A stretch of DNA of 35,815 nucleotides. Origin: Methanobacteriota archaeon (GTDB taxonomy: Archaea; Thermoplasmatota; Thermoplasmata; SG8-5). Shown piece by piece: positions 2,651-35,815 of this stretch. Position 1 is the first letter of the stretch. Each line of letters begins with the position of its first letter. The stretch is from the NCBI GenBank assembly GCA_013791785.1, contig VMTD01000102.1:1-35815 (forward strand), read 5' to 3'. The position numbers and the translations under genes are program-made. The notes beneath the pieces are model-generated. The model saw only the letters and a list, made by a program, of their open reading frames with translations, did no database searches and was not told the origin of the DNA.

Positions 2651-2783
2651 ATTAGCAAACCGATAAAGATGTTTCTGGTTAAAATCATTTCGGGATGCTA
2701 GGTCGTCCAGAGGAGGCTGTCCGGGATGTACGGGGAGGGAGAGGGCGCTGGGGGAGTGGAGATAATGATTCAGACTGATTATT
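2651..2783. other. Intergenic spacer with a purine-rich tract
   Basis: A gap between the truncated copy and the small membrane-protein gene. On the plus strand, roughly 2710-2760 is strongly G-rich, unlike the AT-rich sequence to its right. I recognise no tRNA, hairpin terminator or clear promoter. Confidence 0.4.
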
Positions 2784-15200: not shown

Positions 15201-18200
15201 TGCCATCACCATCTGTATCTTTGATTGTCGGATATGTGCCCAAAACATATTCCTGAGCATTCTTAAGCCCGTCTCCGTCTTTATCCGAGTCTTTATCAGA
15301 GGGGGTTGTAGGGGATAATCCATATCCATCTTCCCAGCCATCTGGCATTGTGTCGTTATCAGTGTCCCATTTTATTGGGTCATAACGCATTTCATATTCG
15401 AAACCGTCTTCCAGTTCGTCTCTGTCCGTATCATTTGAACGGGAGTTGGTGCCCAACGATTGCTCTCCCAGATAGTATAATGTTTCATCAATCACTTCTG
15501 TTATAACTTCTAAAGAATCATAGTATTTCCTTTGTAGTTCACTTAAAGTGGAAGCATTCACATTAAACCCGTCGAGTAATCGGTCTTCGTCCGTATCCGG
15601 TTTTGCAGGATGGGTACCATATCCAGAAACTTCCTCACCATCGAGAAGCCCGTCCCCGTCAGAATCCGTGGACCAGGGATTGGAACCCAGCTTGGTCTCA
15701 TTGCCATCGGAAAGACCGTCGCCGTCCATATCCGGGTCGAACGGGTCCAGCCAGCGTTTGGACACGATTATCGAGGTTATTGTACTGGTTGTGTTTAATG
15801 CTTGAGTTGCATCAAAAGTTGCAAAATAACTTCCAGGAGTCAGATTAAGATAAACGATATAGTATCTTGAGGATGTGATGTTGACGAACTGGAGATTGGT
15901 AAGGTTGGATGAGAGAATTGCACAATTTGTGTTATTTTTGGTTTTATAAATGACATCCAAACTATTCGAAATTTTTAGAACATTATCGGAAACAATCTCA
16001 TTCGCCAGGAACTCAGCCTTTACCTCCTGCGGATTGTTCGAGGCAAAGAATATCCCCATGGTCAAATACTCCTCATAATAACTTGCATCGAAATTGGTTG
16101 TGGTTACCTCGGTTGTTATCTTGACAGAGTATTCACCAGGCAAGGAGATGTCGAACCATTGGGTTCTGGATGCAATATCCTTCTTGAATATCGGGATGAA
16201 CTGGCCGGCCTCTTCGAAATCATTGAGACCGTCCTCATCGTAATCCGCAACAGTCGGCATGGTATTCAGATATACCTCAGCCCCGTCCGGGAGGCTGTCA
16301 TTATCCCAGTCCTGGCACTTCACACGTTCCCAGACCTCAGGCCAGGAGAGTTGCTCGATGGTGTACCAATAAACCGCTTCTGCCGAATCCCAGAAATTAT
16401 CTCCATCCGTGTCATAGGTCCATATGCCAAGTTCAGATTGGCTCTTCATTTTGTCGCTTAGGAATATGTCGTAGGTGTTGGCTTGATTGGGATCAGTTCC
16501 TTGTTTCAGATAAGTAATAGTTGACAATGTGATTTTGAAATATGTTCTTCCGTCAAAATTCTCGGGATTTGCCGCGAGCCATAATTCTGAAAAACCATTT
16601 TTGTTGAATATACCTGAATAGGATATGTCAATATCGACCCAGTTATCGGTCAATGTTCCAATATCTGTCATCTGATTTAATGTGGTATTATTTAATCCAT
16701 TACTAAGAATGCCAGCTAATTTAAGGGCATTCTGAAGGAGCGGTGCGGTTGTGGAGTTGACATGTGCTGTGCCATTCAAGAATACCATGTAATTGCTGTC
16801 CGAAGGATAATCCGAGATATTCAGGTATGTTTCAGATGAGGGGGAGAAGAATTTTTTGTTAATAGGTATGGTTTCCAACATCCAATAATTGAAAATCTCT
16901 TCATTATCTCTTAATCCATCATAATCAGAATCGGGGTTTATCGGAGAAGTACCGTAATATTGTTCCACGCTGTTTACTAAGCCATCTCCGTCCGGGTCTT
17001 CTTCCGGGGCATTTGCAGCATTTGGCCCCAAACCGTACTCTGTTTCCCAGAGATCAAACAGCCCGTCATTGTCTGAGTCAAGAAGAGATGCGTCAGCAGC
17101 GGTGAATACACTTAAGCTATGAACCTTCGCCCAAACAGTGTTTGTTTCCAGTTCCACACCGGTCGTGTCACCGATTGACGGATTGGCACATATTTGCCAT
17201 GAACTGCCATCAAAATGATATAATCTCAAGGCGGCTTCATTAATGTTCGTCGGTAAGGTTGCTGGGTTGTATTTGATTTTAATGTATGCGGTCAGCGCTC
17301 CTTCTGCATTTATATCGTAATATTCTCCGGTAGAATGTGCCAGGGGTATCGAAGGAACAACTGAGGTGACTGTTGGTGCCGTGGTATTGTCATCTTCATA
17401 ATCTATGAGAACCGACACCGAACCGTCCGGTGCCGTATATGACGCGTCGCCGCTGATGGACGTATTATCATTCAGGTCAAATTCTGTGGGGTGAATATCA
17501 TTCTGGTCAACGATGCCATCATTGTCGAAGTCAACGCGGATGTAATAATTGACTCCGCAACCGAATTGATATACCGTGACCTGCAAGAATTCCGAAGTGA
17601 TTTCCAATTTCATGTCGGTTGCGGATATCTGGGGCATAGATGCAATATATTTCGGTTCCTGCCAGGTAACTCCATCAACCGACGTAGTGTAGAAAAGTTG
17701 CTTGGGGCATGTATTGGAGAGCCAGGCAACATATATGATATTTGAATGTGGGTCGACGCATAATCGGGGGACAAGTCCATCATTTGTGATTATGACTTCT
17801 TCCGACCACTGGTCATCAATCACCATGTTATTTGCATAAACCACTGTTTTGTTACCCCCGAAAACTCCGATTGCATGAACAATCCCTTTACCATCAATGC
17901 CATAGGAGTGATAATCTTTAACATCAGGGTTTATCGCTTGCGGTTGTGAAGACAAGGACTGGATGGTGATTGTTGCTTGACTTGTGAGTCCATTATGGTC
18001 CGCTACAATAAGAGTGACTTCATGAGTTCCATGATGCATGAATGTATAATTGAATTTTGGTGCGATTGACAAAACATCATCTATATTCCAAAGGGTGGTC
18101 CTAATTCCATCATCTATATCTGTCGATAAATGGGAGTCAAAAGTATAGCTAGGGCATAATTGTGAAATTTGTTCGATGTAAGGGTCTAGATTCAATGAGT

Positions 18201-20703
18201 CCTCATAAGTTTCTCCTTGATTGATTTTTTTATTGATGACATAGGTTCTGACCTGATTATCCAACTGTATTCGTATTTTCAGTTGCATATTAGTTTTACT
18301 GTGGCCAGTAGCTGATATATTCAACGAATAGGAGTGACCTAAATGACATACTAATTCAATTGTCGCTTCATCATTATCGGCATCCAACGATGTTTGAGAT
18401 ATTATCACCCCCTCCTCAAGAAGTGAAAAATCAACATCCACATCTCCTTGATTTAGTTCATAAGTGATTGAATATGATTGATACACATCGATAATAGCAA
18501 CTGGAGGTTGGTTGACAAATATCGAGTGCTCGATTTTGGCAATAAGACCATTGTCAAGGTTTGTGTCTGAATCCACGGTTGCCACCATCGTATGGTACCC
18601 GAGTTCGGCAATCCAGGTGATTGAGAATGTCTTGGTTGTATGGGCCGGGAAACAAGCGACCGGTATGCTCGCAATCAATGTTGGTTCTGACAAAATGTAA
18701 AAATTAACAAACACGTTGAAAAGGTCTCCATCCCCATCATTCGAGAAGGTTGCACTTAGGGTAACCTCTTCTCCGGCTGTCGGAGAATTCAACTCACTTG
18801 AGACATCCGCATTCGAACCGTTTATTGCTGCAGAACCGGCGTTGAGATAGTAAATCTCAGAATTCCCATTCCTGTAATCCTGCCATACAACATGGATGCA
18901 GCCGTTTCTGTCTACTGAGAGGTCGGGATTGACGCTATCTGTTATCACATCGGTCAGGTATAGTTCCGGCGTCATGAATGCTCCAGACTCTTCCATGGCT
19001 CGGTATTTTACAGTACCCTCTGCCGGTTGTTCGCCTTGATATTCCTCTACTTCAGTCCAAACCGCATGAAGTGTACCATTGTCATCCAACGCGCCATTTG
19101 GTAATATTGCATTCCTTTGAGATATGGTCACCTGAGCATCGTCACTCCATGTAATGCCTTCGTCTTCAGAATATTTTTGATATATTTGGTATGAGCCAGA
19201 CCGCGCATCACTCCATAGTAACATCAACCGAGTTTCGTTCCTGATAAGCTGCATTTGTCCGAGCCATATGCCACCAGTGTCCGGTTCCCCTGTGTATTGT
19301 GTTAATATTATCGGTTCCTCCCAATTCGTACCATTGTCCAGGCTGAGCCAGTAATAAATATTCTTACTATCGAAATCTGCAATTGCCACGTAAACTGAAC
19401 CATTGTTGACTTCAATATCAGGTATGCCAGCAAACTCACCACCGTTGGGATTGGCAAAGATGTATTGACTCACCTCAGTCATGCTTGTATTGGCCATCAC
19501 TAATTTAATGTACATGTAGATGTCAGGGCCACCTATTCTAAAGCTTCTATGTGCCAGATATATTTTGCTTCCATCAATTACTAAACTTGGATCCCATGCT
19601 GCAGCGCATGTATAAGGTTCGCTCCATGATGTCCCCCCATCCAAACTGCAAATTACATAAACGTATGAACCACTTTCCCAAGCAATAACCAATGATGTCC
19701 CGTCTGCATCAAATACAACATCCCCGATTGCTCCATTGAAACCCCACAGATATGATTCATTGGACCACGTAACTCCGAAATCATCACTTTTTTTGAATAA
19801 TACCAGGTCATCTCCGTCAATATTTTCCTTCCAAGTCACATATATTTCCCCATTATCCCCAGTCGCCACTTCTGGGGAATAGGAATCGTAAGTTACATTT
19901 GTCAATCGGATATTCGGTCTATTTAACCAGTTATTATATAACACTGGGTTCCAGGATTGCCCAATAAATGAACTTGTAAGATTTAGAGTGAATTGTGAAG
20001 GAATTTTACTGCGAAGAACTATTCCGTCCGTTTCTGGTGGAAGGTTCAGAGGAAATATGGGGTCTGGCATTCGGTCATCGTTCAAAACATCGAATATCGA
20101 AATAGAACCCTTGGTCATTGAGAAAAAGGGCATTTCCACATCAGTATCCAATGAAATGGAATGATTTAACCCAGGGGCAAAGCTGAGTCTAGCTTCGTAT
20201 GGGTAATATTTCTCTTCGTCGGTCAAAGCACTGGCATTGAATCGGCCAGGAACGGTAGTGCCATGAACAAAACAGTCATCCTCTATCGAGAAGGATTCAC
20301 CAGCTGGCAGATTGAAGGCTTCCAGGGTAATATCAGCTAGTGGATTAATTGTATTCGTTAAATTATTATGAGTCCAGTTCAGAGATATGATAACATAGTT
20401 GATACCAGAAGGGAAAAACCCTGCTCCAAGACCAATCTTGGTAAGGTCATAATCGGTTTCCGATCCACTATCGAGTTTCAATACGATTGAAATATTGGCG
20501 GATATGTTATTGAATATCAAGTTAAACTCACCATTTCCGCTACGAGAAATTGGTCCGAACGGGCAATTATTCACATCAATTACTACGGGGTCTGAATTCG
20601 CCAATACGCCCTGCGCGGCACTCAGCAGTAAAACAGCCACTGCGAAAACCGCAAAATAGACACCGTTCGTCCTCATTTCCTTCCAGGATTTCTTTATTAA
20701 CAA
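3286..20703 (-). CDS. Giant secreted, membrane-anchored TSP3/LamG/PKD repeat protein (5805 aa)
   Basis: One intact frame of 5805 codons. The start is TTG at 20703, fixed by a strong GGAGGAGGG five bases upstream. The N-terminus (MLIKKSWKEMRTNG, then a hydrophobic run ending AQGVLA) is a signal peptide. Approximate order: propeller/BNR-like sheets with VYVAW-type strands (265-620); CARDB-like (620-730); PKD interrupted by an insert (730-915); second propeller-like stretch (915-1050); then about 57 DxDxDG TSP3 motifs to about 5300. Between these lie two LamG domains (about 2850-3030 and 3250-3430), three further jelly-roll modules (about 3695-3865, 3900-4055, 4215-4400), an Ig-like region (about 5385-5500), an amphipathic helix and 5-6 membrane helices (5560-5805). 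TSP3 repeats bind calcium and form stiff rods; LamG/concanavalin folds usually bind glycans or proteins. Likely a surface adhesin or S-layer-associated stalk. That role is inferred. Confidence 0.9.
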   Translation of the reverse strand: MLIKKSWKEMRTNGVYFAVFAVAVLLLSAAQGVLANSDPVVIDVNNCPFGPISRSGNGEFNLIFNNISANISIVLKLDSGSETDYDLTKIGLGAGFFPSGINYVIISLNWTHNNLTNTINPLADITLEAFNLPAGESFSIEDDCFVHGTTVPGRFNASALTDEEKYYPYEARLSFAPGLNHSISLDTDVEMPFFSMTKGSISIFDVLNDDRMPDPIFPLNLPPETDGIVLRSKIPSQFTLNLTSSFIGQSWNPVLYNNWLNRPNIRLTNVTYDSYSPEVATGDNGEIYVTWKENIDGDDLVLFKKSDDFGVTWSNESYLWGFNGAIGDVVFDADGTSLVIAWESGSYVYVICSLDGGTSWSEPYTCAAAWDPSLVIDGSKIYLAHRSFRIGGPDIYMYIKLVMANTSMTEVSQYIFANPNGGEFAGIPDIEVNNGSVYVAIADFDSKNIYYWLSLDNGTNWEEPIILTQYTGEPDTGGIWLGQMQLIRNETRLMLLWSDARSGSYQIYQKYSEDEGITWSDDAQVTISQRNAILPNGALDDNGTLHAVWTEVEEYQGEQPAEGTVKYRAMEESGAFMTPELYLTDVITDSVNPDLSVDRNGCIHVVWQDYRNGNSEIYYLNAGSAAINGSNADVSSELNSPTAGEEVTLSATFSNDGDGDLFNVFVNFYILSEPTLIASIPVACFPAHTTKTFSITWIAELGYHTMVATVDSDTNLDNGLIAKIEHSIFVNQPPVAIIDVYQSYSITYELNQGDVDVDFSLLEEGVIISQTSLDADNDEATIELVCHLGHSYSLNISATGHSKTNMQLKIRIQLDNQVRTYVINKKINQGETYEDSLNLDPYIEQISQLCPSYTFDSHLSTDIDDGIRTTLWNIDDVLSIAPKFNYTFMHHGTHEVTLIVADHNGLTSQATITIQSLSSQPQAINPDVKDYHSYGIDGKGIVHAIGVFGGNKTVVYANNMVIDDQWSEEVIITNDGLVPRLCVDPHSNIIYVAWLSNTCPKQLFYTTSVDGVTWQEPKYIASMPQISATDMKLEITSEFLQVTVYQFGCGVNYYIRVDFDNDGIVDQNDIHPTEFDLNDNTSISGDASYTAPDGSVSVLIDYEDDNTTAPTVTSVVPSIPLAHSTGEYYDINAEGALTAYIKIKYNPATLPTNINEAALRLYHFDGSSWQICANPSIGDTTGVELETNTVWAKVHSLSVFTAADASLLDSDNDGLFDLWETEYGLGPNAANAPEEDPDGDGLVNSVEQYYGTSPINPDSDYDGLRDNEEIFNYWMLETIPINKKFFSPSSETYLNISDYPSDSNYMVFLNGTAHVNSTTAPLLQNALKLAGILSNGLNNTTLNQMTDIGTLTDNWVDIDISYSGIFNKNGFSELWLAANPENFDGRTYFKITLSTITYLKQGTDPNQANTYDIFLSDKMKSQSELGIWTYDTDGDNFWDSAEAVYWYTIEQLSWPEVWERVKCQDWDNDSLPDGAEVYLNTMPTVADYDEDGLNDFEEAGQFIPIFKKDIASRTQWFDISLPGEYSVKITTEVTTTNFDASYYEEYLTMGIFFASNNPQEVKAEFLANEIVSDNVLKISNSLDVIYKTKNNTNCAILSSNLTNLQFVNITSSRYYIVYLNLTPGSYFATFDATQALNTTSTITSIIVSKRWLDPFDPDMDGDGLSDGNETKLGSNPWSTDSDGDGLLDGEEVSGYGTHPAKPDTDEDRLLDGFNVNASTLSELQRKYYDSLEVITEVIDETLYYLGEQSLGTNSRSNDTDRDELEDGFEYEMRYDPIKWDTDNDTMPDGWEDGYGLSPTTPSDKDSDKDGDGLKNAQEYVLGTYPTIKDTDGDGIEDNNETISVKLRTNATEGAISSSGYGQPNTWIDAQIGTIPTRYMFSHSNNTFDQQYAGSGDSTQVVEVKAFDDGGVILARWEPVGNELNHTSQATASSNISFGTDNIIAQSFSVSGPEPVVSKIALGVYRKNASVNGTLNVEIREDNLNKPSSIIVTTGTANISLFPIVSGNLTQVMVSPVLLKPQRMYWLVISAPDSGKDNVSISSGGEQSYSFGEARMRRGQSTWWNPVKKDIVFKVGGYSGVDYTTIYIWKAGSRRTGELSGVCAQYNATLESVSPDLLRPAAGYRNMELYIGSDPTKMDTDGDGLKDGYERSIGTDPTNPDSDDDGVPDGREIELDGYPTNPDSDNDGIKDGHEPLWYQDIDGDGLIGMLDNDSDGDGLLDGPTIGGRLGEDLNGNGIIEAGETNPIDADTDSDGIRDWEEITVLGGGEMIDTDLDTLHNALDSDSDGDGLPDGKEVRVLFRTNAVNLVFGNQTWVEAMNNTAAWEEAPSPLLNWTLTTYLFVDYDQTTLGGTIMQNISNGIDLEIVFAPDGDLYIYNSTSWSHFTKGYSPNATNSSFPITSFTKNNQEYLAWISLSENKTIEYANVLNRDSDGDALLDGMEDANGNGLPGPGEANLFIPDTDGDGILDGDEIDWNIDTDGDGLINALDIDSDGDGLNDSHEMHNLGTSMVLYDTDADGLWDGYNITDRYGANRTGELSLETCPLDIDTDDDGLLDGYSTFIDGTLYLGELALGTKPSGPNSTDFDGDGLWDGQEVGLYYHNATSLNIVTDNMTGVKATNLSVFLNHSDADHGTTTDPTKIDTDFDDIPDGWIDGWNNGTKDGARQPWEGEDLSLNGKVDSWMGMNETSPNSLDSDRDGLNDSAETSFGTYWFYVDNQNNVSLITPLQNGTYSILVLVNATCEGTVTMTAPGNGMATVKPGIRWISIVDCLDITAYANITLFASPGVTIRRVLVSAPVLVLTNYSWYNLSIGETREITIPDGYYIEDASVEFTPVGRHDGNISGATWSSGKVGNAMVFDGVDDFVEIGDATSLNPTNALTIELWVNTSSTSTPAGWIPFVQKAFTSQVTPHYQYAVGYSGSYNNSYKLRFGVSINGIVQELETMQDSFIPDGRWHHIVATYNGTVLKIYLDGTEMANRTVTGNIDVFSTNLTIGGTPTFAGSNYHYNGLLDEVRILNRALTPEEIFQDYNATGRYPIRSNTTAWYTFDEANRSSPNTIYDLSGFNNLGTTYNVATIIPGGTVEVAFDNWQPIYGTLIDSTGTLGDNDDNIMTIRSKTYLENIKVWDDNTGTWTFVEVTRYRLGYIWKIAAPLNVDGIAENFRILLRGMSPDGVSIPFSWSKDGTNYNSLFSLSEISETEKISSYLTGIINGDTIYIKAIKSGEANSFDLSVDRLVIVYDRWTPTYSEGGCKVAVNGAALNFDSSDDYVSITGLTLPTEPNTKVTVEFWMYWKGGNNQMPFGWNTYDLWLYNNAFGFNSGAGDIYGISSIGLANRWVHVVAIFNNGDIKLSLLYIDSELQELSQMEGASIASMLVSSTCKISGWNNDNGYKFGGSIDEFRILNRSLSATEIMEDYNATGKYPMRNGTVVWYHFDEGENTTAKDSNYVQDLTLSIGNETVPIWANYGAFTETVTAEFMEDYFNQQVNKTTGVLSLSFGALYGGMLGYVIVYLRLAPIRTCPTAKDTDEDELTDWYEVNFYGTNPLSWDTDDDMLSDYWEIMGPTGTNPAMRDTDHDGLWDGFQDLNGNGIFDPCTEVGEDVNQNYVQDWDETHPRDPDTDNDGLVDGVERIPGVMWFEAENYSANSIYDPEANGDFATGNVYLPAIGDSNLLPVLEDGLWKLNVRVKGNYLDTPENALFYEDFSSGINGWQKYGFATASDGYLYLSGNSSNASWVYYPLPTQPSRNDYIVSFDYYWPPASPMSNFIVFGSYDGAEYDDIYIQQTNDKLYCYPDSAPFATISADFWHHFDLYMVSDGTYRIYIDERLVKSGIQINTGRMVRIGYIGDVSDNSAYYGSAFWDNFKIVESESVKIILTTSVEAKNETMDSAEDWELISPGNGAYAVINNGILEIFDNLTTDYARARPSTVTPIYYPEFVVSFNFRPGTGIIPANSFRIATLPFIVVFLEKNADEFLANVGGVYSILGSDANLWHLFQFYYYSNGTWLGYVDGECNWHGSWTVTISNMQVTFGSYPGFTTTSKLALGHGYWDDLVIINTVKSSKIEPLTTEYEWFSTPSFGTTTNRRWGIEIKGLSAGQLLVDRWMLANVPNGTMISDPLTWDTDADGLSDGQERGTYRCNPMVRDTDNDGLLDGIEAMPKVGTDPWNPDTEYDYLVDGDGAEIQVIFRTNATANSDGSLIFYKVGTWIAIPKLVEIHTITFADDFSSSLAQWTVGSGTYPYASWSILNGGLWQGAPNAGNTNIYTQAFDNDYSEDSVIEISWTMSGGQNIHCGIYIFASDPTQTNRGNAYFIWQAPAGLVLHKIENNIELPRSALFAILSTHATYNYLVRFDVKDRMLCIYRDGAFIGSWQDSPSSQTYRGRYLSFRTELSYMSADNVKVYTVGYIPMKQSNTLQAFTFVGTIPRSSITTQLGSPIYYKTPDNLMMYCNRASPPNVIWIENGPVCYEYRSSTISNYEPSYRPVLSYALADQEVYRNCAKTADADGDGIIDGLESAYGCSSRDRDSDDDGLADGYELFVLGTNPGKIDTDGDGVQDGTENGVTADMVQSGYWNSEVNMFIYGTNMNIFVPDSDPTKTTNPLLKDTDGDGLWDGWDGTNGEDIPTVRGQWGDGKVSDDTRESDPTNADSDGDMLKDGIDPAKRDADYDDDGLWDGPSVGNYTGEIVYGTLAYHADINKARDYDGDGLWDGQEVGLTSTKVKLNSAAYHGYTVWYTNPAQFKVDMDSATTTDPRNPDSDYDGLNDSQEEYTLVNGKRDPGETDPNNPDTDGDGLKDGYERNTLSTDPLDMDTDDDGLLDGPTLVIKGKRYIGEMQYSTDPTGVNSDKDGDLLPDHMEVGLYYITSEDKNILLDGENGVKATDYDKLPGERTSGKWGCWNDRGALRTRPDLNDTDLDGVLDKEEIDWGMDPCADDRGMDSDKDGLMNLVEYEYNRNHTTPGNPVFSAASTDTDADGIPDKVEHDFALAHESETDFDPLDPINGTGDYDHDGLANYDEMYTYPTNWTLADTDGDTLSDGTEFAMGTDPLDPDTDRDKILDGAEPKVVYRTNAIDIEGVPDFGNAWIALDDTGWTDNVWTLNGYIPASPCKVIHGENVSVAVDHIGSTPEGYNISKTASGISIIVNKTLNYTTGTWQIIEYKFQAGAGAILDSAPSQWFAINGTEVYGGLSPTSNDTDGDGLYDGPNVDYTYTLDKKNHQGEESVGTDPLNPDTDGDSANDGQELFGYDLVWMSINPDGTVKEHYVNGTTSDPLDAFNYGYDSRKGWSEYRDLDTDGISDYNETHYGDIYPAIVDWANQKRAEWVLEYPVWNNTWGRNSPYAFVWDIVSGDEDEIVIDLPTPLADITKGDFRKAHPEPQEFNATEYLSNQFNPFVKENNPPMITNVVIDTKESWGWTWYGYVCEHAWAEIDVSILDVAPYNLWIGVTDRGTYLFFSGSGGQYAQVHHAVIDLDYWGDVAAEYYVNVTAWDTAGNIAYYEKEVAGFFGGIMNFLEGVWNEMCNQFAQAWEKLKEAVNILYNIMVEAIMKIFRPLFEQVNTTVNNFFNGLLNLLGSSSDSSSTKMPPEHNILSSSNIMEINTIFDTGTAKNLADYVLGSQFMIVLFLILTGLEQFEKISRCNPLVWAVAIIIISLFILFMIKIINNMNEFVSPANGDRTYVPACTNLPEPENSVINAAIDVAGIMVAIQSFFLAKDKGKSGSGVNDLAWGIALAFASAMLSFASIASLNDFNPLAATLLLFGSIVILLTSTYYLIKGGLAEAFTAPFTFIFGLIGYSWSVIQIFFSYYELVNYINVYGW
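4800..17550 (-). repeat. Thrombospondin type-3 repeat coding array
   Basis: Degenerate DNA repeats encode the motif D-(T/S)-D-x-D-G-(L/I)-x-D, often followed by GxE...GTDP.NPD. By eye I count about 57 copies in the giant protein, interrupted by beta-sandwich modules. This is a protein repeat with varied codons. It is neither a CRISPR array nor an exact DNA tandem repeat. The block is GC-rich compared with the membrane tail and the LamG parts. Confidence 0.85.
8000..12200 (-). repeat. LamG/jelly-roll module block inside the giant gene
   Basis: Five concanavalin-like modules lie between blocks of TSP3 repeats. The two LamG copies end alike: (E)xRILNR(A/S)L(T/S)..EI..DYNATG(R/K)YP(I/M)R, then W(Y)xFDE. 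The first spans about 12160-11590 and the second about 10960-10400. Three related modules with WHHF/WHLF and DNFKI/DDLVI-type strands follow, at about 9620-9110, 9000-8540 and 8050-7510. The block is more AT-rich than the flanking TSP3 code, which suggests separate evolutionary input or different codon constraint. The coordinates are approximate and were read from the translation. Confidence 0.7.
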
Positions 20704-25871: not shown

Positions 25872-27188
25872 TCAAACCTCTAAAACGCCCTTAATTGTTA
25901 TCCTATTATGTTCATTACTCCATTGAACACAACCCCATCGGCTGAGTTCATCAATGACATCGGGAGATGGATGTCCATAGGCATTAAGGATGCCTGCTGA
26001 CACACACCACAATGTAAACCACCGTTCATGACCTAAAAGATCGAGCATAATGAGGCTGTTCCAGTTCTCCACAGAGCCGTGATGAGGCACTTGAACAATT
26101 TTTATTTGATTTTTAAATTCATCGTAATGTTTCAATAGTTCTATGTTCCTCTTGTGGTTTAGATCTATATCTCCAGTTAATAAATGACCAAATCTGTTTG
26201 AGTCGTGTTCACATAAATGTTTTGTAAGGTAAAATGGAAAACATTCATACCCACGTTGAATACAATAATTACAGAGTAAGGATACATGCTTTGGTTTCTT
26301 AATGGGTCCGTGGTATAAAACCAGTGATGTGTCATTTGATTTCATGCGAAGTTTCGAATAACTCATTTTTATTTTTTTTCGTTCTTCTTTGCTTCGTATT
26401 ATCTCTCTTAGGGCATTTGAATCATCTGGGTCGATACCTATATTTTTAAGACAGTTATGAAAACCTTCCAGTGTATCCTCTTCGACCTTGTAATTAAAGA
26501 ACTTAAAAATCCAATAATTTGATAATGGAACACTGTGTAAATGGTTTTTTACTAACAGTTTGTTTTCTTGAACCCAATTTGGGTCGTGTTCGCTTATCTG
26601 TTTTTTTAGTTGCCAATCGTCGTGCATTTTTATAAAATTTAAATCATTTTTCCCGATATCATCCTCTCTGAATTGGTCACTAAATTTAAATTTAGTTTTC
26701 GCATATTCTTCAGTCTCAGAATCCCCTCCTACAATAATTACTTGGTTCGCCTTCTTATTTTTTATTAAAAACGACACAGGGTCTGATAAGAAATCAAAGT
26801 ACCAGTCATAGGGCTTTTCATCATCTGACTTTTCTGGAGCCCCTGGATTTCTCAATCCTATAATCAATCGTTCTATAGGGGTAAAATATGGTATGACTAC
26901 CTTATCTACAGCAACATCAGACAAAAGTTTATCGACACCATTAATATGGTCAATATCAAAATGAGACAGAACTAATAAATCTATTTGGTTTCGTTGAATA
27001 TGATTCTTATAGGCCGTGATAGCTTGGTCTAAAAAATGCCTCGGACTTTTAGTGCCACAATCGTAAACAAAGTTGAATGATCTTGTATGTGCCATTTTTA
27101 TGCGTCCAGAATAAAATAGGCCCTGACCAACATTATGGAATATGGACTCTGCCTGATTATCCCTCATCATCTTTAACCACCAAGCCAT
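25872..27188 (-). CDS. Metallo-beta-lactamase-fold hydrolase (ComEC-like MBL subfamily)
   Basis: A 438-aa protein. The MBL signature is HFDIDH (residues 76-81), the form in which the second His of HxHxDH is Asp. Later metal and active-site segments are DTSLVLYHG, LLTGDID, VPHHGS and GHPS. The N-terminus (SIFHNVGQGLFYSG) is typical of ComEC/Rec2-like MBL proteins, but no membrane domains are present, so this is a soluble stand-alone hydrolase. About 150 residues between the HxDxDH motif and DTSL form an extra, partly charged insert. Members of this group occur in defence and NTPase-nuclease contexts; the substrate cannot be told from sequence. It is divergent from the nucleotidyltransferase/DUF6602 pair, which suggests one module. 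The start may instead be the ATG at 27170, which has GGTGG upstream. Confidence 0.75.
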   Translation of the reverse strand: MAWWLKMMRDNQAESIFHNVGQGLFYSGRIKMAHTRSFNFVYDCGTKSPRHFLDQAITAYKNHIQRNQIDLLVLSHFDIDHINGVDKLLSDVAVDKVVIPYFTPIERLIIGLRNPGAPEKSDDEKPYDWYFDFLSDPVSFLIKNKKANQVIIVGGDSETEEYAKTKFKFSDQFREDDIGKNDLNFIKMHDDWQLKKQISEHDPNWVQENKLLVKNHLHSVPLSNYWIFKFFNYKVEEDTLEGFHNCLKNIGIDPDDSNALREIIRSKEERKKIKMSYSKLRMKSNDTSLVLYHGPIKKPKHVSLLCNYCIQRGYECFPFYLTKHLCEHDSNRFGHLLTGDIDLNHKRNIELLKHYDEFKNQIKIVQVPHHGSVENWNSLIMLDLLGHERWFTLWCVSAGILNAYGHPSPDVIDELSRWGCVQWSNEHNRITIKGVLEV

Positions 27189-27344: not shown

Positions 27345-27385
27345 GGTAAACAGTATTAAGGGGATTGCAACAAAGTGGTGGAAAA

Positions 27386-28147
27386 ATGGTAACCCAACAA
27401 CAATATATGGAGCAGATACTAGCTAAGTATAATTTGAAAGAAGCGGACATAGTGCCATTAAAGAAAAAGAGAGCGGTGATAGAGGATTATGTAAGGTCAC
27501 GATATGGCTCAAAAATGGCTACATTCTATTACTCTGGGTCTTATGCAAAAGGCACAGCAATTAATTTAAAGTATGATCTTGATTTATGCATTTACTTTAA
27601 ACATAATGCGTTCTCTTCACTTTCTGAGATGTATAACGAGGTTTACAAAGTGTTGAATGAAAAATATCCTGTCTATAAGCAGAAAGTCGCAATTGGCCTT
27701 AAATATGGAGATGACAACATAGATGTTGTACCAGCTAGAAAAATAGACGAGAGAACAGATGATGCCAATTTGTTTGTCACGAGCACTAATGGCCAGATAA
27801 AAACAAATATTCCCAAGCACAAAGAGTACATAAGCCAGGCGAAATGCAGGCCTACGATTAAGTTGATGAAGATATGGAAATTCAGACATTCACTCCATTT
27901 TAAATCATTTGCTCTTGAGTTGCTTACAATAAAGGCCCTTGAAAACTGCAACAGTGATGACCTTGGCGAACAGATCTTGCATGTTTTAAGATTCATACGT
28001 GACAATGTACAAAATGTAAAATTAGTTGATCCAGCCAACTCAAATAACATAGTTTCAGACTTAGTGGACCAAAACGATAAAGTCAACATGAAAAACAATG
28101 CTGACGCCTCTCTGAGAAAAGAACAATGGAATGATATTATCTGGTGA
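27386..28147 (+). CDS. CD-NTase/OAS-like nucleotidyltransferase
   Basis: A 253-aa protein of the polymerase-beta-like superfamily. The glycine-serine motif is GSYAKGT (residues 51-57), the metal-binding pair is DLDL (D64 and D66), and the third acidic residue is in NIDVVPARK (D113). Short helices before GS and strands around DxD fit the OAS/cGAS-like class I group, which makes cyclic or linear oligonucleotide second messengers in CBASS defence. The second half (RPTIKLMKIWKFRH...SFALELLTIKAL) matches the helical OAS/CCA-adding core. I chose the ATG at 27386 over the in-frame TTG at 27365 because GGTGG precedes it. It overlaps the next gene's GTG start, so the two are cotranscribed. A less exciting alternative is an orphan NTase with another substrate. 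Confidence 0.75.
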   Translation: MVTQQQYMEQILAKYNLKEADIVPLKKKRAVIEDYVRSRYGSKMATFYYSGSYAKGTAINLKYDLDLCIYFKHNAFSSLSEMYNEVYKVLNEKYPVYKQKVAIGLKYGDDNIDVVPARKIDERTDDANLFVTSTNGQIKTNIPKHKEYISQAKCRPTIKLMKIWKFRHSLHFKSFALELLTIKALENCNSDDLGEQILHVLRFIRDNVQNVKLVDPANSNNIVSDLVDQNDKVNMKNNADASLRKEQWNDIIW

Positions 28148-28899
28148 CAATAATGGCTAAAGGGAAATCAAAAGTAAATCTTCCCCATCTTTTTATGGAT
28201 TTACAGAAAGAGATGGTCGCTAAACTTTCGACTGGCCGAAGAGCTATTCGCCATCCGGGTAGCAAAGGTGATGACTCTGAACTTAACTGGCGTAACTGGC
28301 TGAAAAATTACCTGCCGTCTAGATATTCTGTTGACAAAGCGTTTGTTATAGATTCGAGAGGGGCTATTAGCGATCAAATTGATCTTGTGATTTATGATTG
28401 CCAGTACTCTCCATTTCTATTTAAACATGAAGGAGCTATGTATATCCCAGCTGAAAGCATATATGCTGTGTTTGAAGTCAAACAGGCTTTAGATAAAAAG
28501 ATGATACAATACGCAGGTGAAAAGGCTGCTTCAGTCAGAAAACTATACCGTACAAGTGCAGAAATTACACATGCTGGAGGAAAATTTACACCACGCGAGC
28601 CAATTCCAATCTTTGCAGGGATTTTGTCTCTTGACAGCAAATGGAAACCCTTGTTTGGTTCGCCTCTTAAAGAAGCGTTGGTTAATCTTAAGAAACTTGA
28701 ACGTCTTGACTTTATTTGCGCACTTAAAAATGGGTCCGCAGAGATTTCTTATAATGCTAATAGACCAGTATTTGATGAAAGTAAAAAAAATGACGCTTTA
28801 ATATTTTTCTTCTTTGCACTACTCGCTAGGTTACAAAAAGCCGGAACTTGCCCAGCTATTGAATATTCCGAATACGCTAAAGCATTGATTAAAAGATAA
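28144..28899 (+). CDS. DUF6602-like protein with PD-(D/E)xK-type motifs
   Basis: A 251-aa protein starting at GTG (28144), overlapping the previous stop by four bases; an ATG at 28153 is the alternative. Residues 58-113 carry the family pattern: LPSRYSVDKAFVID, QIDLVIYD (D80, D85), IPAESIYAVFEVKQAL (E104, E111, K113). The D...ExK spacing in a beta-strand context is that of restriction-endonuclease-like folds. In the same operon as a CD-NTase it is the natural effector candidate, perhaps a nuclease switched on by the nucleotide product. No SAVED, CARF or other known sensor domain is seen, so activation by a messenger is inference. The C-terminal half is helical and unassigned. Confidence 0.65.
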   Translation: MTIMAKGKSKVNLPHLFMDLQKEMVAKLSTGRRAIRHPGSKGDDSELNWRNWLKNYLPSRYSVDKAFVIDSRGAISDQIDLVIYDCQYSPFLFKHEGAMYIPAESIYAVFEVKQALDKKMIQYAGEKAASVRKLYRTSAEITHAGGKFTPREPIPIFAGILSLDSKWKPLFGSPLKEALVNLKKLERLDFICALKNGSAEISYNANRPVFDESKKNDALIFFFFALLARLQKAGTCPAIEYSEYAKALIKR

Positions 28900-29397: not shown

Positions 29398-30312
29398 ATG
29401 AACTTACTTATTCCATTTGTATATTTATACGACCATGATGACCCTCTTTTTAAGGAATTTACCTATGGTGATGTTGGAACGAGAGCCAAAAAATTGAAAA
29501 ACTCTCTCAAAAAAGGTGACTATATCTTCTTTCATACTAGCATCGGTAGTAAAAAATACATCACTGCTTATTATGTAATAGATAGAGTACTGGATACAAT
29601 CGAAGCAATTAAAGATAAAAATATTATGGCAAAATACAAAAATCCTCATTTAGAAAGACGACCGTCAAAACATGAAAGGTATGGGGGAGATGTACTTGTC
29701 TTTGGTGATCCTATTACTTCAAGAACTTTAGATAGGCCATTGCTATTCGATAAGGTTCTTGCCAGGAAACTTTCATTGGATATCAAATTTCCAAAGGGGA
29801 GAACAGAAACGCAAGCTATCGGCTCTGCAACGAGAGCCTGGAGGGAATTAACAGAGAACGATGTGGATGTCCTTTTATCAGCTATTAAATTATCTGAACT
29901 AGAGGGGCAACCCATTGAAACCATCTTATCTACAGATGAGGTAACCGAGATTATTGAAAAAGATATTGAGAATTACATCGAGAAAAACCCAAGTTTGATT
30001 GGAGAATCTCTAACATTAATGAAAAGACAGTTAGATACGCCAGTAGGTAGGATAGACTTACTTTTTGAAGATAAAAAAGGCAATCTAATAGTTGCTGAAT
30101 TAAAACTTAATAAGATTGGAAGAGAGGCAGTAAATCAATTGAGAAGATACATGAACTGGGTTAAGAAGGAAACTAAAAAAGAGGTTACTGGAATCATCAT
30201 ATGCAAGGGTGTGATGCCAGCATTTGAGGAGGATATTAAGAAGCTAAAGGATATAGGGGTTTTTTGTTACGGGTGGCAACTAAAGGTTTACCTGTGGGGG
30301 GAGATTATATGA
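29398..30312 (+). CDS. NucS/DUF91-type endonuclease domain fused to an unidentified N-terminal domain
   Basis: A 304-aa protein. The C-terminal part (about 185-300) matches the NucS (DUF91) nuclease domain: IEKDIENYIEKNPSLI, RQLDTPVGRIDLLFEDKKGN, VAELKL, and the QLRRYMNWV helix. Catalytic residues are D220, E234 and K236 of the PD-(D/E)xK set. The N-terminal 170 residues (GDYIFFHTSIGSKKYITAYYVIDRV and onwards) are not the usual NucS N-terminal domain. Their beta-rich look resembles EVE/PUA-like or Nmad-type modified-base-associated domains, but I am not sure. NucS cuts at mismatches; in this two-gene AT-rich cassette a defence role against foreign or modified DNA seems as likely as repair. 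Its stop overlaps the next start (ATGA). Confidence 0.75.
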   Translation: MNLLIPFVYLYDHDDPLFKEFTYGDVGTRAKKLKNSLKKGDYIFFHTSIGSKKYITAYYVIDRVLDTIEAIKDKNIMAKYKNPHLERRPSKHERYGGDVLVFGDPITSRTLDRPLLFDKVLARKLSLDIKFPKGRTETQAIGSATRAWRELTENDVDVLLSAIKLSELEGQPIETILSTDEVTEIIEKDIENYIEKNPSLIGESLTLMKRQLDTPVGRIDLLFEDKKGNLIVAELKLNKIGREAVNQLRRYMNWVKKETKKEVTGIIICKGVMPAFEEDIKKLKDIGVFCYGWQLKVYLWGEII

Positions 30313-32845: not shown

Positions 32846-33697
32846 ATGATTTGTCAAAAATGCGGTATGAACAAAAGAGGAGTCGGTGATTTTTTTATTT
32901 GTGATGATTGTGAAAAATTCTCCGGTTTGGTGAATAAAATCTATAGCGATTTAGATACAAAGATTAGAGATATGAAAACAATAGATCCAGAAATAACTCC
33001 TATTTTTAGAATGATTGCAGATAGTTCATTTATTACAGCACAAAATCCACAAACACGAATTTTTTACAAAATGTGTGAATTTTTCGTCGAAAATGCAGTT
33101 GAAGGAAAATATGAGATTACAGAAGATGAATTGAATCGAGGAATTCCAACAACACGGGCCTGGTCTGATGCGTTAAAAGTGTTTGCTGAACTAGAATTAA
33201 TTGATATCAAACGGGGGAAATATATGAGGACTATTATCCTCAAGGACAAAATGAAAAAATTTGCCAAACAATTTTTCAGTGTAAAACCCAAAACTCAGCA
33301 GCTAACCGACCGTTTGGCTCATATTTATACTGGTTATGTCCTTCTATATATATTAAATTCAATGGCAGACATGGACGAGGGGTCTGACCCCTCAATTCTT
33401 CCATATAAACAGAGGCCAAAAACTTTGTGGATAACGCTCATGTATATTTGGACCTGTGTTTATGATGAAAACGATAATTTCTCAGAAGAAGATATGAGGA
33501 AATTCATGGCTAAAAGGCGCGTCCCATCCACCTCGCGAAGTCAAATCATTCGAGCACTACAAAATATCGATGGAAAAACTGTTCAAAGCCTTATTAAGGA
33601 TTGGAAATACAAAGGAGACGATCTAATCTTTACATTTGATGATTATGTAATCCTCGAAATGGAAAGATTAAGAGAAGATAGAGAGAGGAAGAGGTGA
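32846..33697 (+). CDS. Zinc-ribbon/winged-helix protein, first gene of the AAA-SMC operon
   Basis: A 283-aa protein. MICQKCGMN...FFICDDCEK holds a four-Cys knuckle (C3, C6, C19, C22). Residues about 85-135 (YEITEDELNRGIPTTRAWSDALKVFAELELIDIKRGKYMRTI) have the helix-helix-wing pattern of a winged-helix domain. The helical C-terminal half (VLLYILNSMADMDEG to the end) is unassigned. It ends with a basic tail (RLREDRERKR). It is probably a DNA-binding subunit or the operon's regulator. The stop codon sits inside the GAGGTGAT ribosome site of the AAA gene, so translation is coupled. Confidence 0.65.
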   Translation: MICQKCGMNKRGVGDFFICDDCEKFSGLVNKIYSDLDTKIRDMKTIDPEITPIFRMIADSSFITAQNPQTRIFYKMCEFFVENAVEGKYEITEDELNRGIPTTRAWSDALKVFAELELIDIKRGKYMRTIILKDKMKKFAKQFFSVKPKTQQLTDRLAHIYTGYVLLYILNSMADMDEGSDPSILPYKQRPKTLWITLMYIWTCVYDENDNFSEEDMRKFMAKRRVPSTSRSQIIRALQNIDGKTVQSLIKDWKYKGDDLIFTFDDYVILEMERLREDRERKR

Positions 33698-33701
33698 TAA
33701 T

Positions 33702-34472
33702 ATGTCGCAATCAAAAAATGAAATTCTTCAGGTTTTAAGTCCAAGTGAAATCATTGAAGTTAATCTTCTCCCTGAATTACAGGAAATTGCAGATTTGATG
33801 GCTAGAACCTGTGAATATTTTTTCAAAGGATATGGGCCAATGGGTGAAAATGCACCATTTAAAGGATTTTTATTAGAAGGTCCTCCCGGAACAGGAAAAA
33901 CTGAGGTTGTAAAACAAGTAGCAATTAGGCTAGACAGAATTCTTCAAAATGTAAGTTATATGATGATAGATGGGGCATCAATTGCTGCACCAAAATGGGG
34001 AGAAGCTGAAACAAAATTACGAGGCGTTTTTCGTAAATCATTCGAACTTGAAAAGGAAAAAAGTAATGCTAAATTGGTAATTCTCTTTGATGATATTGAG
34101 AGTTTAATGATATCTAGGGGAGTGGATCTCGCCAAAGAATGGCATTATTCGATTAATTCTATTCTTTTTCATGAACTAGACGCAATGAATCCATATCATA
34201 CAATTGTATGTGCAACAACAAATCGTGCTGACCTCGTAGATGAAGCTATAAAAACTAGATTGTATCCTATAAAAGTGCCAGATGTTCCCATTGAAAAACT
34301 GATAGGAGTTGTTGACGAACTCATAGATATGAGCAAGATTAAAGATGACGATAAAACATATATCACTGAAGTGATTATCAATCGATTAAAGGAATTAGAG
34401 CGTCCAACGATTAGAGAAGCTCGTCAAATTACAGTAATTGAATGTATAAAAAATGGTGTGTGGAGTGTATGA
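33702..34472 (+). CDS. Single-domain AAA+ ATPase of the Vps4/CDC48 type
   Basis: A 256-aa protein. The Walker A motif is GPPGTGKT (residues 60-67), the pore loop is KWGEAE (K98, W99; compare KWxGESE in Vps4/p97), Walker B is LVILFDDIESL (D130, D131), and sensor 1 lies in ATTNRADL (N174). A candidate Arg finger is R186 in IKTRLYPI. The catalytic Glu of Walker B is Asp here, which may slow hydrolysis. There is no N-terminal adaptor domain and no protease domain. Enzymes of this clade form hexamers that thread or remodel proteins, so the substrate is likely a partner from this operon, such as the SMC-like protein. The start ATG follows GAGGTGAT, and the stop overlaps the next ATG (ATGA). Confidence 0.85.
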   Translation: MSQSKNEILQVLSPSEIIEVNLLPELQEIADLMARTCEYFFKGYGPMGENAPFKGFLLEGPPGTGKTEVVKQVAIRLDRILQNVSYMMIDGASIAAPKWGEAETKLRGVFRKSFELEKEKSNAKLVILFDDIESLMISRGVDLAKEWHYSINSILFHELDAMNPYHTIVCATTNRADLVDEAIKTRLYPIKVPDVPIEKLIGVVDELIDMSKIKDDDKTYITEVIINRLKELERPTIREARQITVIECIKNGVWSV

Positions 34473-34852
34473 TACCTTTGGAAAATATCCCAAGAAGTGG
34501 AATGTTAGTGATTAGTGTATATTTTAAAGGCTATAAAGACTATTATCAAAATGAATCAAGAAAAGAACTTAAAGAACAGATTCCAGTAATTGATAAAAAT
34601 GCAAATCTAGGTATAGAGTTAAAGCCTTTTCAATTTTCATTACTTCGCCATGTTGATGATGATGGAGAAAGCAGTAGGAGAAGGGGACGAAGTATTGGAG
34701 TAATCTATAGCTTTTCATTTAAGAACATGACAGCAGAAAAATATCAAACTTTACATTCCCAGGTTCAAGATCTTCTAGGTAAAAAAAAGAGTAAGTGGAG
34801 TCACTTTGATATTATGATTTCTAGCAGGGTTGGGGGTTTGTCTGATGAATGA
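34469..34852 (+). CDS. Unknown 127-aa protein in the AAA-SMC operon
   Basis: Starts at ATG 34469, overlapping the AAA gene's stop by four bases and preceded by GGAGTG. The fold appears mixed alpha/beta: LVISVYFKGYKDYY, a charged middle (HVDDDGESSRRRGRS), then IGVIYSFSFKNM and a helix AEKYQTLHSQVQDLL. No family is recognised. Its stop overlaps the next start, so it is a fixed part of the operon and may be a subunit of the same complex. Confidence 0.65.
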   Translation: MIPLENIPRSGMLVISVYFKGYKDYYQNESRKELKEQIPVIDKNANLGIELKPFQFSLLRHVDDDGESSRRRGRSIGVIYSFSFKNMTAEKYQTLHSQVQDLLGKKKSKWSHFDIMISSRVGGLSDE

Positions 34853-34976
34853 AGAACTTAAAAAGGAAATTGAAAATTTTGCAGGAGCAAAAAAATCAAA
34901 TATTAACAAATTTGAAAAAGAGCTAGATAAAGTTCTTAGTAAAATCGCAGAAGAGGTGTACAACAATGAAGGCTAA
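34845..34976 (+). CDS. 43-aa microprotein between the unknown gene and the SMC-like gene
   Basis: Starts at ATG 34845, overlapping the previous stop, and ends at TAA 34976 inside the next gene. The product (MNEELKKEIENF...NKFEKELDKVLSKIAEEV) is a highly charged, predicted amphipathic helix pair suited to coiled-coil binding. Its 3' end supplies the GAGGTG ribosome site for the SMC-like gene. Retention between tightly overlapping genes argues that it is translated. A small kleisin-like or adaptor peptide is possible, but that is speculation. Confidence 0.5.
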   Translation: MNEELKKEIENFAGAKKSNINKFEKELDKVLSKIAEEVYNNEG

Positions 34977-35815
34977 ACTGACTGTTAAAGAAGTTGGAGG
35001 CCTCCGAGGTGAGCACGTTTATGAATTAGAATCTGGAAAAACTTGGTTATTAAAATCATCAAACTCAGGTGGAAAAACTTCCCTTCTCAGAGCGCTTTCT
35101 GCAGTCCTCTCAGTACCTCAAGATGGAGACTTCGGAAAATATCCTCGTGAAGAAGCTATTAAGCTAGGGATACAAACGGAAGATGTTTCACCTAAAGAGG
35201 GTTTTGTAAATGTACATTCCAAACAAGCAGAAGTTACACTAGAGATCGGGGATGTCACCAGCAAATATATTGTGACACGAGATGGTAATTACATTTCTTT
35301 ACCTCATAATGGGGATCCTAGATTTTTATTAGCTGGAGTAATATCTAATAACTCAAAGATACTACGTCAATTAAGAAATGTTGATGGCCGGGACCAACCG
35401 GATGATTTCGAATGGGCAGTTAGAGAACTGTCTAAGGCTGCACGATACGAAGATATTTTGAATTTACTTAAGAATAAAAGGGATGAATATTCAAATCAAG
35501 TTATAACTGTAAATAGAAAGGTAAAAGATCGAGAGCGGTTAGAAAAGGAAGAGACTAACCTGATTCAAGAAAAGACAAAATTAGACAAAAAACTTGATGA
35601 TACAAAATTTGAAGATACAAATATTGAAGAACTAATAAAAAAGCGAGAAAAGTTGATTGAAAAGATTGATAACAAACGAACTGCAATTTCTGATGAAGAA
35701 ACAAAGATTAAAGAAACCAAAGGGAAATTAAATGAAATAAAAAAATCAATCAAAATTATTCAGAAGGAAAATAAAGAATATGAGGCAGAATTAAAGAAAT
35801 TTGACCTTGAGAAAA
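34966..35815 (+). CDS. SMC/Rad50-like ATPase, partial (archaea-specific SMC-related type)
   Basis: Runs off the right edge; 283 residues are visible. It begins MKAKLTVKEVGGLRGEHVYELESGKTWLLK, the N-terminal ATPase strand pattern of SMC-like proteins. The P-loop is SSNSGGKTS (S31-S39), with Ser in place of the first Gly. A long charged coiled coil starts at about residue 165 and is still running at the edge. The VxxVGGL...GxTxLL...N..xTSLLxAL pattern recalls the 'archaea-specific SMC-related protein' family of haloarchaea, which also has an unusual P-loop; this is from memory. A GAGGTG site lies six bases before the ATG. The second ATPase half and hinge should be in the sequence beyond 35815. 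Confidence 0.75.
   Translation, partial: MKAKLTVKEVGGLRGEHVYELESGKTWLLKSSNSGGKTSLLRALSAVLSVPQDGDFGKYPREEAIKLGIQTEDVSPKEGFVNVHSKQAEVTLEIGDVTSKYIVTRDGNYISLPHNGDPRFLLAGVISNNSKILRQLRNVDGRDQPDDFEWAVRELSKAARYEDILNLLKNKRDEYSNQVITVNRKVKDRERLEKEETNLIQEKTKLDKKLDDTKFEDTNIEELIKKREKLIEKIDNKRTAISDEETKIKETKGKLNEIKKSIKIIQKENKEYEAELKKFDLEK

What the first reader, a model, noticed from the sequence alone, without database searches (positions are those of the whole stretch)
32846..35815. Overlapping operon pairing a Vps4-type AAA+ ATPase with an SMC-like ATPase
Five genes are translationally coupled: stop codons within ribosome sites, or 4-11 base overlaps. They encode a zinc-ribbon/winged-helix protein, a one-domain protein-remodelling AAA+, a 127-aa unknown, a 43-aa helical microprotein and an SMC/Rad50-like protein. 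I know of no described archaeal system with this set. A DNA-loop-extruding or DNA-sensing SMC complex that is assembled or recycled by a hexameric unfoldase would be new; plasmid/virus defence or chromosome organisation are both possible roles.
Basis: partly seen in the sequence, partly recalled or inferred. Interest (0 to 1): 0.8.

Follow-up and report, generated by a model that had tools for sequence, protein, structure and literature searches.

The report
Mobile SMC-like, AAA and sulfur-enzyme operon
The genes at the end of this archaeal contig belong to a seven-gene machine, apparently not described before, that pairs a DNA-handling SMC-like ATPase with a ring-shaped protein remodeller and a sulfur-transferring enzyme, and it has spread between unrelated archaea and into bacteria, which suggests a DNA defence or DNA-marking role that nobody has yet tested.

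Summary
The contig ends inside the SMC-like gene. Its other half lies on contig C102, followed by a paralogue of the first zinc-ribbon protein and a PAPS-reductase/ferredoxin enzyme. The order ZnR-A, AAA, 127-aa protein, microprotein, SMC-like, ZnR-B, plus an adjacent PAPS-reductase gene, recurs in Hydrothermarchaeota, Archaeoglobaceae, Thermoplasmatales and an Actinomycetota-labelled contig. A shorter core (AAA, small protein, microprotein, SMC-like) recurs in Chloroflexota and other archaea: 16 distinct loci in all. The SMC-like protein belongs to the known archaea-specific SMC-related family (ASRP: coalescin, Sph). Its partners are not those of Sph/RdfA, Lamassu, Wadjet, Mre11-Rad50, Dnd or BREX. 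The AAA protein is CDC48-like, not Vps4, and always has Walker B 'DD'. The 127-aa protein is predicted to have a ferredoxin-like fold; the zinc-ribbon proteins are predicted tandem winged helices. Gene and species relationships conflict, so the operon moves horizontally. A CBASS operon lies 4 kb upstream, but most other copies are not in defence islands. Best reading: a mobile DNA-sensing or DNA-marking system, probably anti-invader. The gene set is strongly supported; the function is inferred only.

The parts
32846..33697 (+). ZnR-A: N-terminal four-cysteine zinc ribbon followed by two predicted winged-helix domains, 283 aa
   Evidence: Open frame; AlphaFold2 model pLDDT 86.6 with Zn ribbon and two H-H-strand-strand modules; conserved in 8 other loci; homologous over full length to ZnR-B (hhalign 99.0%, E 5e-18)
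33702..34472 (+). Single-domain CDC48-like AAA ATPase, 256 aa; Walker A GPPGTGKT, pore-loop-like PKWGEAE, Walker B ILFDDIE (DD, not DE), sensor TTN, single Arg before LYP
   Evidence: Pfam AAA 2.9e-19; Walker B DD in 21 of 21 family sequences; 62% identical to L055, 40% to L047
34469..34852 (+). 127-aa protein (S127) with predicted ferredoxin-like fold (beta-alpha-beta-beta-alpha-beta)
   Evidence: AlphaFold2 pLDDT 81.8, pTM 0.76, elements E11-19 H24-44 E50-60 E75-85 H89-104 E110-119; best PDB matches include dimeric ferredoxin-like and PII-like proteins, E about 1e-3; orthologues
34845..34976 (+). 43-aa microprotein (MICRO), translationally coupled on both sides
   Evidence: Frame and overlaps; small ORFs of 42-53 aa at the same place between S127 and ASRP in L047, L054, L055, L056, L057, L059, L065 and, by position, open small frames in L061, L063, L103, L104
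34966..35815 (+). N-terminal 283 aa of an archaea-specific SMC-related protein (ASRP) with Walker A; cut off by the contig end; the C-terminal 359 aa with zinc hook KCPLCED are on contig C102 (locus L043, 2-1081), followed there by ZnR-B (1083-1883) and a PAPS-reductase/ferredoxin protein (1949-3079)
   Evidence: NF045487 profile positions 2-237 here and 249-593 on C102; junction gap of about 4 residues by comparison with L055

Best explanation
A horizontally transferred multi-gene system built round a zinc-hooked SMC/Rad50-like ATPase (ASRP). Proposed working. (a) ASRP dimerises through the zinc hook and its heads, and samples DNA. (b) ZnR-A and ZnR-B, paralogous zinc-ribbon/tandem-winged-helix proteins, serve as its DNA-binding or clamp-closing partners, in the place that ScpB/KITE or DndE subunits hold elsewhere. 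(c) The CDC48-like AAA ring, fed by the ferredoxin-fold protein and the microprotein encoded between it and ASRP, remodels or resets the ASRP clamp. (d) The PAPS-reductase-like enzyme (BrxP/SspD/DndC-like PP-loop enzyme with a ferredoxin domain in most copies) uses ATP and Fe-S chemistry to place sulfur on DNA as a self mark, or acts as the effector. The net role is most likely recognition and restriction or marking of invading DNA. Shown by sequence: the gene set, its order, coupling, domain content, homology of ZnR-A with ZnR-B, and lateral transfer. Inferred: every step of mechanism and the anti-invader role.
For: Same seven genes in window+C102, L055, L056, L057, L059, L047/L064 and L065, and six of the seven (no recognisable microprotein) in L102. 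Shorter AAA-small-micro-ASRP core in L054, L061, L063, L103, L104; AAA-small-ASRP in L105; AAA-378/381 aa-ASRP in L053 and L066. A PAPS-reductase-like gene directly adjacent in 9 loci, on either side and either strand, with differing architectures (window, L055, L056, L057, L059 with ferredoxin Cys; L047, L065 without; L053 very divergent), which argues for function rather than hitch-hiking. The window genome's enzyme scores BrxP 180 bits, SspD 64, DndC 33; BrxP and some SspD of phosphorothioation systems have the same PAPS + alpha/beta + ferredoxin layout (PMC12839542). Lateral transfer: window sister to Hydrothermarchaeum 100/99, Actinomycetota contig sister to Archaeoglobaceae 100/100; only 2 of 300 genomes of the class carry a close ASRP; a Dehalococcoidia copy sits on a 139-kb contig near bacterial DnaA. 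A CBASS cyclase (282 bits) and NucC (319 bits) lie 4 kb upstream in the window; L102 is next to a Mokosh-like helicase and an integrase; L063 has an integrase, L059 a resolvase.
Against: Only two of eleven loci have strong neighbouring defence genes; E-plasma, Hydrothermarchaeum and one Dehalococcoidia copy lie among housekeeping genes. No nuclease or other obvious killing effector is in the operon. The two Dehalococcoidia copies have no PAPS-reductase gene within the DNA held. No cysteine desulfurase in the operon; hosts mostly encode a strong match elsewhere but the two Archaeoglobaceae genomes do not. PAPS-reductase/ferredoxin proteins of this kind are also ordinary in archaea (PRK13795, 211 bits). 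The tandem winged-helix assignment rests on a prediction without a significant global PDB match.
Confidence: 0.5

Rival explanations
1. Chromosome- or cell-organisation module: like coalescin or Sph/RdfA, the ASRP complex shapes the host chromosome or cytoskeleton, and the AAA ring recycles it; no immune role.
For: ASRP family members of known effect act in chromosome compartments (ClsN) and cell shape (Sph3 with RdfA) (PMC9389158, PMC10869688). Some copies lie near dnaA/gyrB-like genes (L061) or cdc6 (L056, L059).
Against: Very patchy distribution (2 of 300 genomes of the class) and transfer across phyla do not suit a housekeeping role; zinc-ribbon partners are not RdfA (hhalign <1%); does not explain the PAPS-reductase.
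Confidence: 0.2
2. A Lamassu-like sensor system: the ASRP is the LmuB-like sensor with short coiled coil and zinc hook, S127 or MICRO the LmuC-like middle component, and the PAPS-reductase or a ZnR protein the effector that kills or arrests the cell.
For: LmuB profiles match 8 of 9 ASRPs (best 1.3e-25); LmuB also is about 650 aa, often has a CPxC hook and usually a substituted Walker B glutamate (PMC10586767); here the position is D, G or N in most full-system copies.
Against: ASRP profile far better (275 vs 51 bits for L055); no LmuC or LmuA match for any operon protein; the LmuA-like metallo-beta-lactamase on C102 is a separate, oppositely oriented gene.
Confidence: 0.15
3. Sulfur or RNA-modification regulon: the PAPS-reductase modifies RNA or assimilates sulfur and the ATPases are stress-linked partners unrelated to foreign DNA.
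For: The enzyme family also contains ordinary archaeal PAPS-reductase-like proteins.
Against: SMC-like and winged-helix partners point to DNA; the enzyme is missing in the Dehalococcoidia copies while the ATPase core stays.
Confidence: 0.1
4. Chance neighbours: unrelated genes that happen to lie together.
For: None beyond incomplete assemblies.
Against: Same order and few-base spacing in several phyla.
Confidence: 0.01

Closest known systems
Archaea-specific SMC-related proteins (ASRP; ClsN/coalescin, Sph)
   Same: The SMC-like protein matches NF045487 best of all families, has Walker A, short coiled coils and a CPLC zinc hook; AAA-linked members form one group beside the Sph/RdfA-type members (89/89, midpoint-rooted).
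   Different: Partners are AAA, S127, MICRO, ZnR-A/B and a PAPS-reductase; the ASRP survey found no consensus flanking genes (PMC9389158). Also present in a clear bacterial contig.
Sph-RdfA pair of haloarchaea and Methanosarcinales
   Same: ASRP with an adjacent cysteine-containing protein, often on plasmids.
   Different: RdfA is not homologous to ZnR-A or ZnR-B (hhalign probability <1%); no AAA/PAPS-reductase set is annotated in the eight ASRP neighbourhoods inspected.
Lamassu (LmuABC)
   Same: Short zinc-hooked Rad50/SMC-like ATPase behind a small protein; Walker B glutamate often replaced.
   Different: No LmuA or LmuC; SMC-like protein is ASRP, not LmuB; AAA and PAPS-reductase are extra.
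Dnd / PbeABCD / Ssp / type-4 BREX phosphorothioation systems
   Same: Coiled-coil ABC ATPase plus DNA-binding partner in Dnd/Pbe; PAPS-reductase with alpha/beta and ferredoxin parts as in BrxP and some SspD.
   Different: No DndD/DndE, SspB/C, PglZ, BrxL or DUF4007 found in or beside the operon; no desulfurase in the operon; an ASRP and a CDC48-like AAA instead.
CDC48/VCP-like AAA ATPases
   Same: AAA domain with Walker A, aromatic pore-loop-like region, sensor 1.
   Different: One domain of about 250 aa, no N-domain, Walker B DD in place of DE, one Arg in place of the usual finger pair.

Membership tests
ASRP (NF045487) | Best match to the ASRP profile | tested here: met
   9 of 9 members match, to 4.1e-90, far above Rad50/SMC profiles; window halves 103 and 160 bits; note L055 at 275 bits is under the curated 300-bit cut-off
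ASRP (NF045487) | Zinc hook and Walker A/B at the two ends | tested here: met
   CPLC or CPVC in window/C102, L047, L055-L057, L059, L061, L063, L065; no CPxC match in L053, L102-L105; Walker A in window; residue after the Walker B Asp varies (DD, DG, DN, DE)
Sph-RdfA | RdfA partner | tested here: not met
   ZnR-A and ZnR-B vs RdfA profile: probability 0.9% and 0.4%
Lamassu | LmuB, LmuC and LmuA | tested here: not met
   LmuB weaker than ASRP; no LmuA/LmuC hit in operon proteins
Wadjet | JetC/MukB-like SMC with hinge, JetA/B/D | tested here: not met
   JetC hits only weak coiled-coil matches, no other Jet protein
Mre11-Rad50 | Mre11 nuclease next to Rad50 | tested here: not met
   No Mre11 in the operon; a Rad50-like gene and a phosphoesterase-like gene beside it (by inspection) lie on contig C137
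Dnd/Ssp phosphorothioation | PAPS-reductase-type sulfur transferase | tested here: met
   BrxP 180 bits, SspD 64, DndC 33
Dnd/Ssp phosphorothioation | DndD-DndE or SspB-SspC scanning pair | tested here: not met
   No DndE, SspB or SspC hit among operon proteins or flanks
Dnd/Ssp phosphorothioation | Sulfur in DNA backbone | not testable with these tools
   Needs mass spectrometry
Type-4 BREX | PglZ, BrxL, BrxC, DUF4007 | tested here: not met
   None at 1e-15 among 64 flanking proteins, none in the operon
Vps4/CdvC | CdvC profile and MIT domain | tested here: not met
   44 bits vs cut-off 650; match only to AAA core; no N-terminal domain

The most novel reading that the evidence does not exclude
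A new class of mobile DNA-defence or DNA-marking machine in which a zinc-hooked ASRP clamp, closed by a pair of winged-helix proteins, is loaded or unloaded by a CDC48-like unfoldase through a ferredoxin-fold adaptor and a microprotein, and directs a sulfur-transferring enzyme on to DNA. It would be an AAA unfoldase working on an SMC-like complex in prokaryotes, and an ASRP-based immune system shared by archaea and bacteria.
Probability: 0.35. Interest if true: 0.92.

Novelty: new variant of a known kind. Interest (0 to 1): 0.76.

Why it matters
ASRPs are widespread but their original function is unknown, and their survey found no recurring gene neighbourhood (PMC9389158). This is such a neighbourhood, conserved from Thermoplasmata to Chloroflexota, so it gives the family a defined set of partners to test. 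If it is anti-invader, it adds an archaeal SMC-based immune system beside Wadjet and Lamassu; if it marks DNA with sulfur, it links SMC-like scanning with phosphorothioate-type chemistry by a different route from Dnd. In either case it would let one ask directly whether an AAA unfoldase drives an SMC-like cycle.

Tried and rejected
RdfA homology of the zinc-ribbon proteins: rejected by profile comparison. Lamassu, Wadjet, Mre11-Rad50: rejected on partners. Vps4/CdvC: rejected. Viral or proviral origin: three viral-contig scans with AAA queries found no relative. Plasmid search with L055 ASRP found only a Methanohalobium Sph-RdfA-type locus, and the plasmid search with the AAA gave only ordinary AAA proteins among the rows shown. 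General defence-island location: tested on 64 flanking proteins of 11 loci; strong hits only beside the window and L102, so it is weak support. AAA family members without ASRP (L058, L062 and seven Chloroflexota loci) are solo genes and were left out of the system; the L058 and L062 genomes lack an ASRP match. PDB fold searches gave no specific function for S127 (generic ferredoxin-like) or ZnR-A (single winged helices only; ScpB at rank 42, E 0.6). Literature not held here, such as the 2020 ABC-ATPase classification of Krishnan, Aravind and co-workers (recalled, not read), may already list this neighbourhood; open-access searches found no description.
Full report
Observation. The five frames are as described, with spacings of +4, -4, -8 and -11 bases. 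The window is the complete contig C5 of a 2.62-Mb, 145-contig genome, so the last gene is cut by the assembly, not by the window.

Completing the operon. A search of the own genome with the ASRP profile found positions 2-237 at the end of C5 and 249-593 at the start of C102. Both halves align to the intact 647-aa orthologue in Candidatus Hydrothermarchaeum (L055) at residues 1-282 and 302-638 with 41-43% identity, leaving about four residues missing. C102 continues with a 266-aa zinc-ribbon protein 1 base after ASRP and, 65 bases on, a PAPS-reductase with a C-terminal ferredoxin region. L055 has the same genes in the same order, with spacings of 1 and 68 bases at these two places. All longer genes are alike: ZnR-A 57%, AAA 62%, S127 42%, ZnR-B 46%, PAPS 50%.

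Conservation. A distant Thermoplasmatales genome (L047, E-plasma) gave the first independent copy, and a scan of GTDB genomes with the AAA sub-alignment gave 13 loci. Local ORF and HMM annotation shows seven genes in window+C102, L047/L064, L055, L056, L057, L059 and L065, and six of the seven in L102 (microprotein not recognisable, S127 duplicated in one frame). The AAA-small-micro-ASRP core is in L054, L061, L063, L103 and L104; L105 has AAA-small-ASRP; Euryarchaeota L053/L067 and L066 have AAA-378/381 aa-ASRP. The hosts that carry a name span Thermoplasmatota, Hydrothermarchaeota, Archaeoglobaceae, Chloroflexota (139-kb contig with bacterial DnaA) and an Actinomycetota-labelled 12-kb contig that could be mis-binned. 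A PAPS-reductase-like gene touches the operon in nine loci, upstream divergent, downstream co-directional or downstream convergent, and is absent from the two Dehalococcoidia loci.

Proteins. ASRP: NF045487 matches all nine full members tested and is the best family where the full table is shown; most carry a CPLC/CPVC hook, and the residue after the Walker B aspartate is D, G or N in most full-system copies and E in some variants. AAA: CDC48-like, Walker B 'DD' in 21 of 21 family sequences. S127: predicted ferredoxin-like fold. ZnR-A: predicted zinc ribbon plus two winged helices, homologous to ZnR-B and not to RdfA. MICRO: 42-53 aa, just upstream of ASRP where found. PAPS-reductase: closest defence family BrxP, whose PAPS + alpha/beta + ferredoxin layout is reported for phosphorothioation-type BREX and some Ssp systems (PMC12839542), but ordinary archaeal homologues are as close.

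Mobility and context. The ASRP tree places the window with Hydrothermarchaeum (100/99) and the Actinomycetota contig with Archaeoglobaceae (100/100), against host relationships; the grouping of all AAA-linked ASRPs apart from the Sph/RdfA-type is moderate (89/89, midpoint root). For that tree the two halves of the window's ASRP were simply put end to end. Close ASRPs occur in 2 of 300 genomes of the class. Integrases, a resolvase or transposase-like genes flank several copies. A CBASS cyclase-NucC pair lies 4 kb upstream in the window, and a Mokosh-like helicase beside L102; the other nine loci show no strong defence neighbour.

Mechanism. The combination of a zinc-hooked ABC ATPase, DNA-binding-type partners, an AAA ring with small adaptor-like proteins and a sulfur-transfer enzyme is best read as a DNA-scanning machine that restricts or marks invading DNA. 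This step is inference. Chromosome organisation is the main rival, since known ASRPs act there (PMC9389158, PMC10869688).

Known or new. No defining partner set of Sph-RdfA, Lamassu, Wadjet, Mre11-Rad50, Dnd/Ssp or type-4 BREX is met. The ASRP survey found no consensus neighbourhood (PMC9389158), and open-access searches found no description of this set; subscription papers were not searched. The parts belong to known families, so it is filed as a new variant of the broad kind 'SMC-like-ATPase-anchored systems', with a fair chance that it is a class of its own.

Noticed in passing
window 27365-28147 and 28144-28899: A two-gene CBASS operon: oligonucleotide cyclase (PADLOC 282 bits) and NucC effector (319 bits), 4 kb upstream of the finding.
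   Followed up: partly
window 29398-30312: PD-(D/E)XK nuclease with NucS C-terminal domain and an Nmad3-like N-terminal match, a possible modified-DNA or defence nuclease.
   Followed up: partly
window 25872-27188 (-) and L043 4125-5078 (-): Two metallo-beta-lactamase-fold genes with weak LmuA/RTasMBL-like matches, one on each side of the operon.
   Followed up: partly
window 3286-20703 (-): A 5805-codon open frame rich in DxDxDG calcium-binding-type repeats with apparent membrane segments at the end; followed by a shorter relative at 116-2650.
   Followed up: no
L061 (Dehalococcoidia, 139-kb contig) 9614-13771: An ASRP operon on a clearly bacterial contig near dnaA, so the family is not strictly archaeal.
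   Followed up: partly
L061 10396-10911: The small protein between AAA and ASRP in Dehalococcoidia matches the Mu-transposase C-terminal domain (Pfam PF22483, 1.1e-6) at residues 116-167; unexplained.
   Followed up: no
L058, L062, L106-L112: The same AAA subfamily, also with Walker B FDD in L058 and L062, occurs as a solo gene without ASRP, once (L058) among genes that look like hydrogenase and hydrogenase-maturation genes.
   Followed up: partly
L044 (own contig C137) 604-6434 (-): Four adjacent genes that look like Rad50, Mre11, HerA and NurA, so the ASRP is additional to normal end-processing genes.
   Followed up: no
L102 2915-6754 (-): A 1279-aa SF1 helicase-type protein similar to Mokosh MkoA / DpdJ next to a copy of the system and a tyrosine integrase.
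   Followed up: partly
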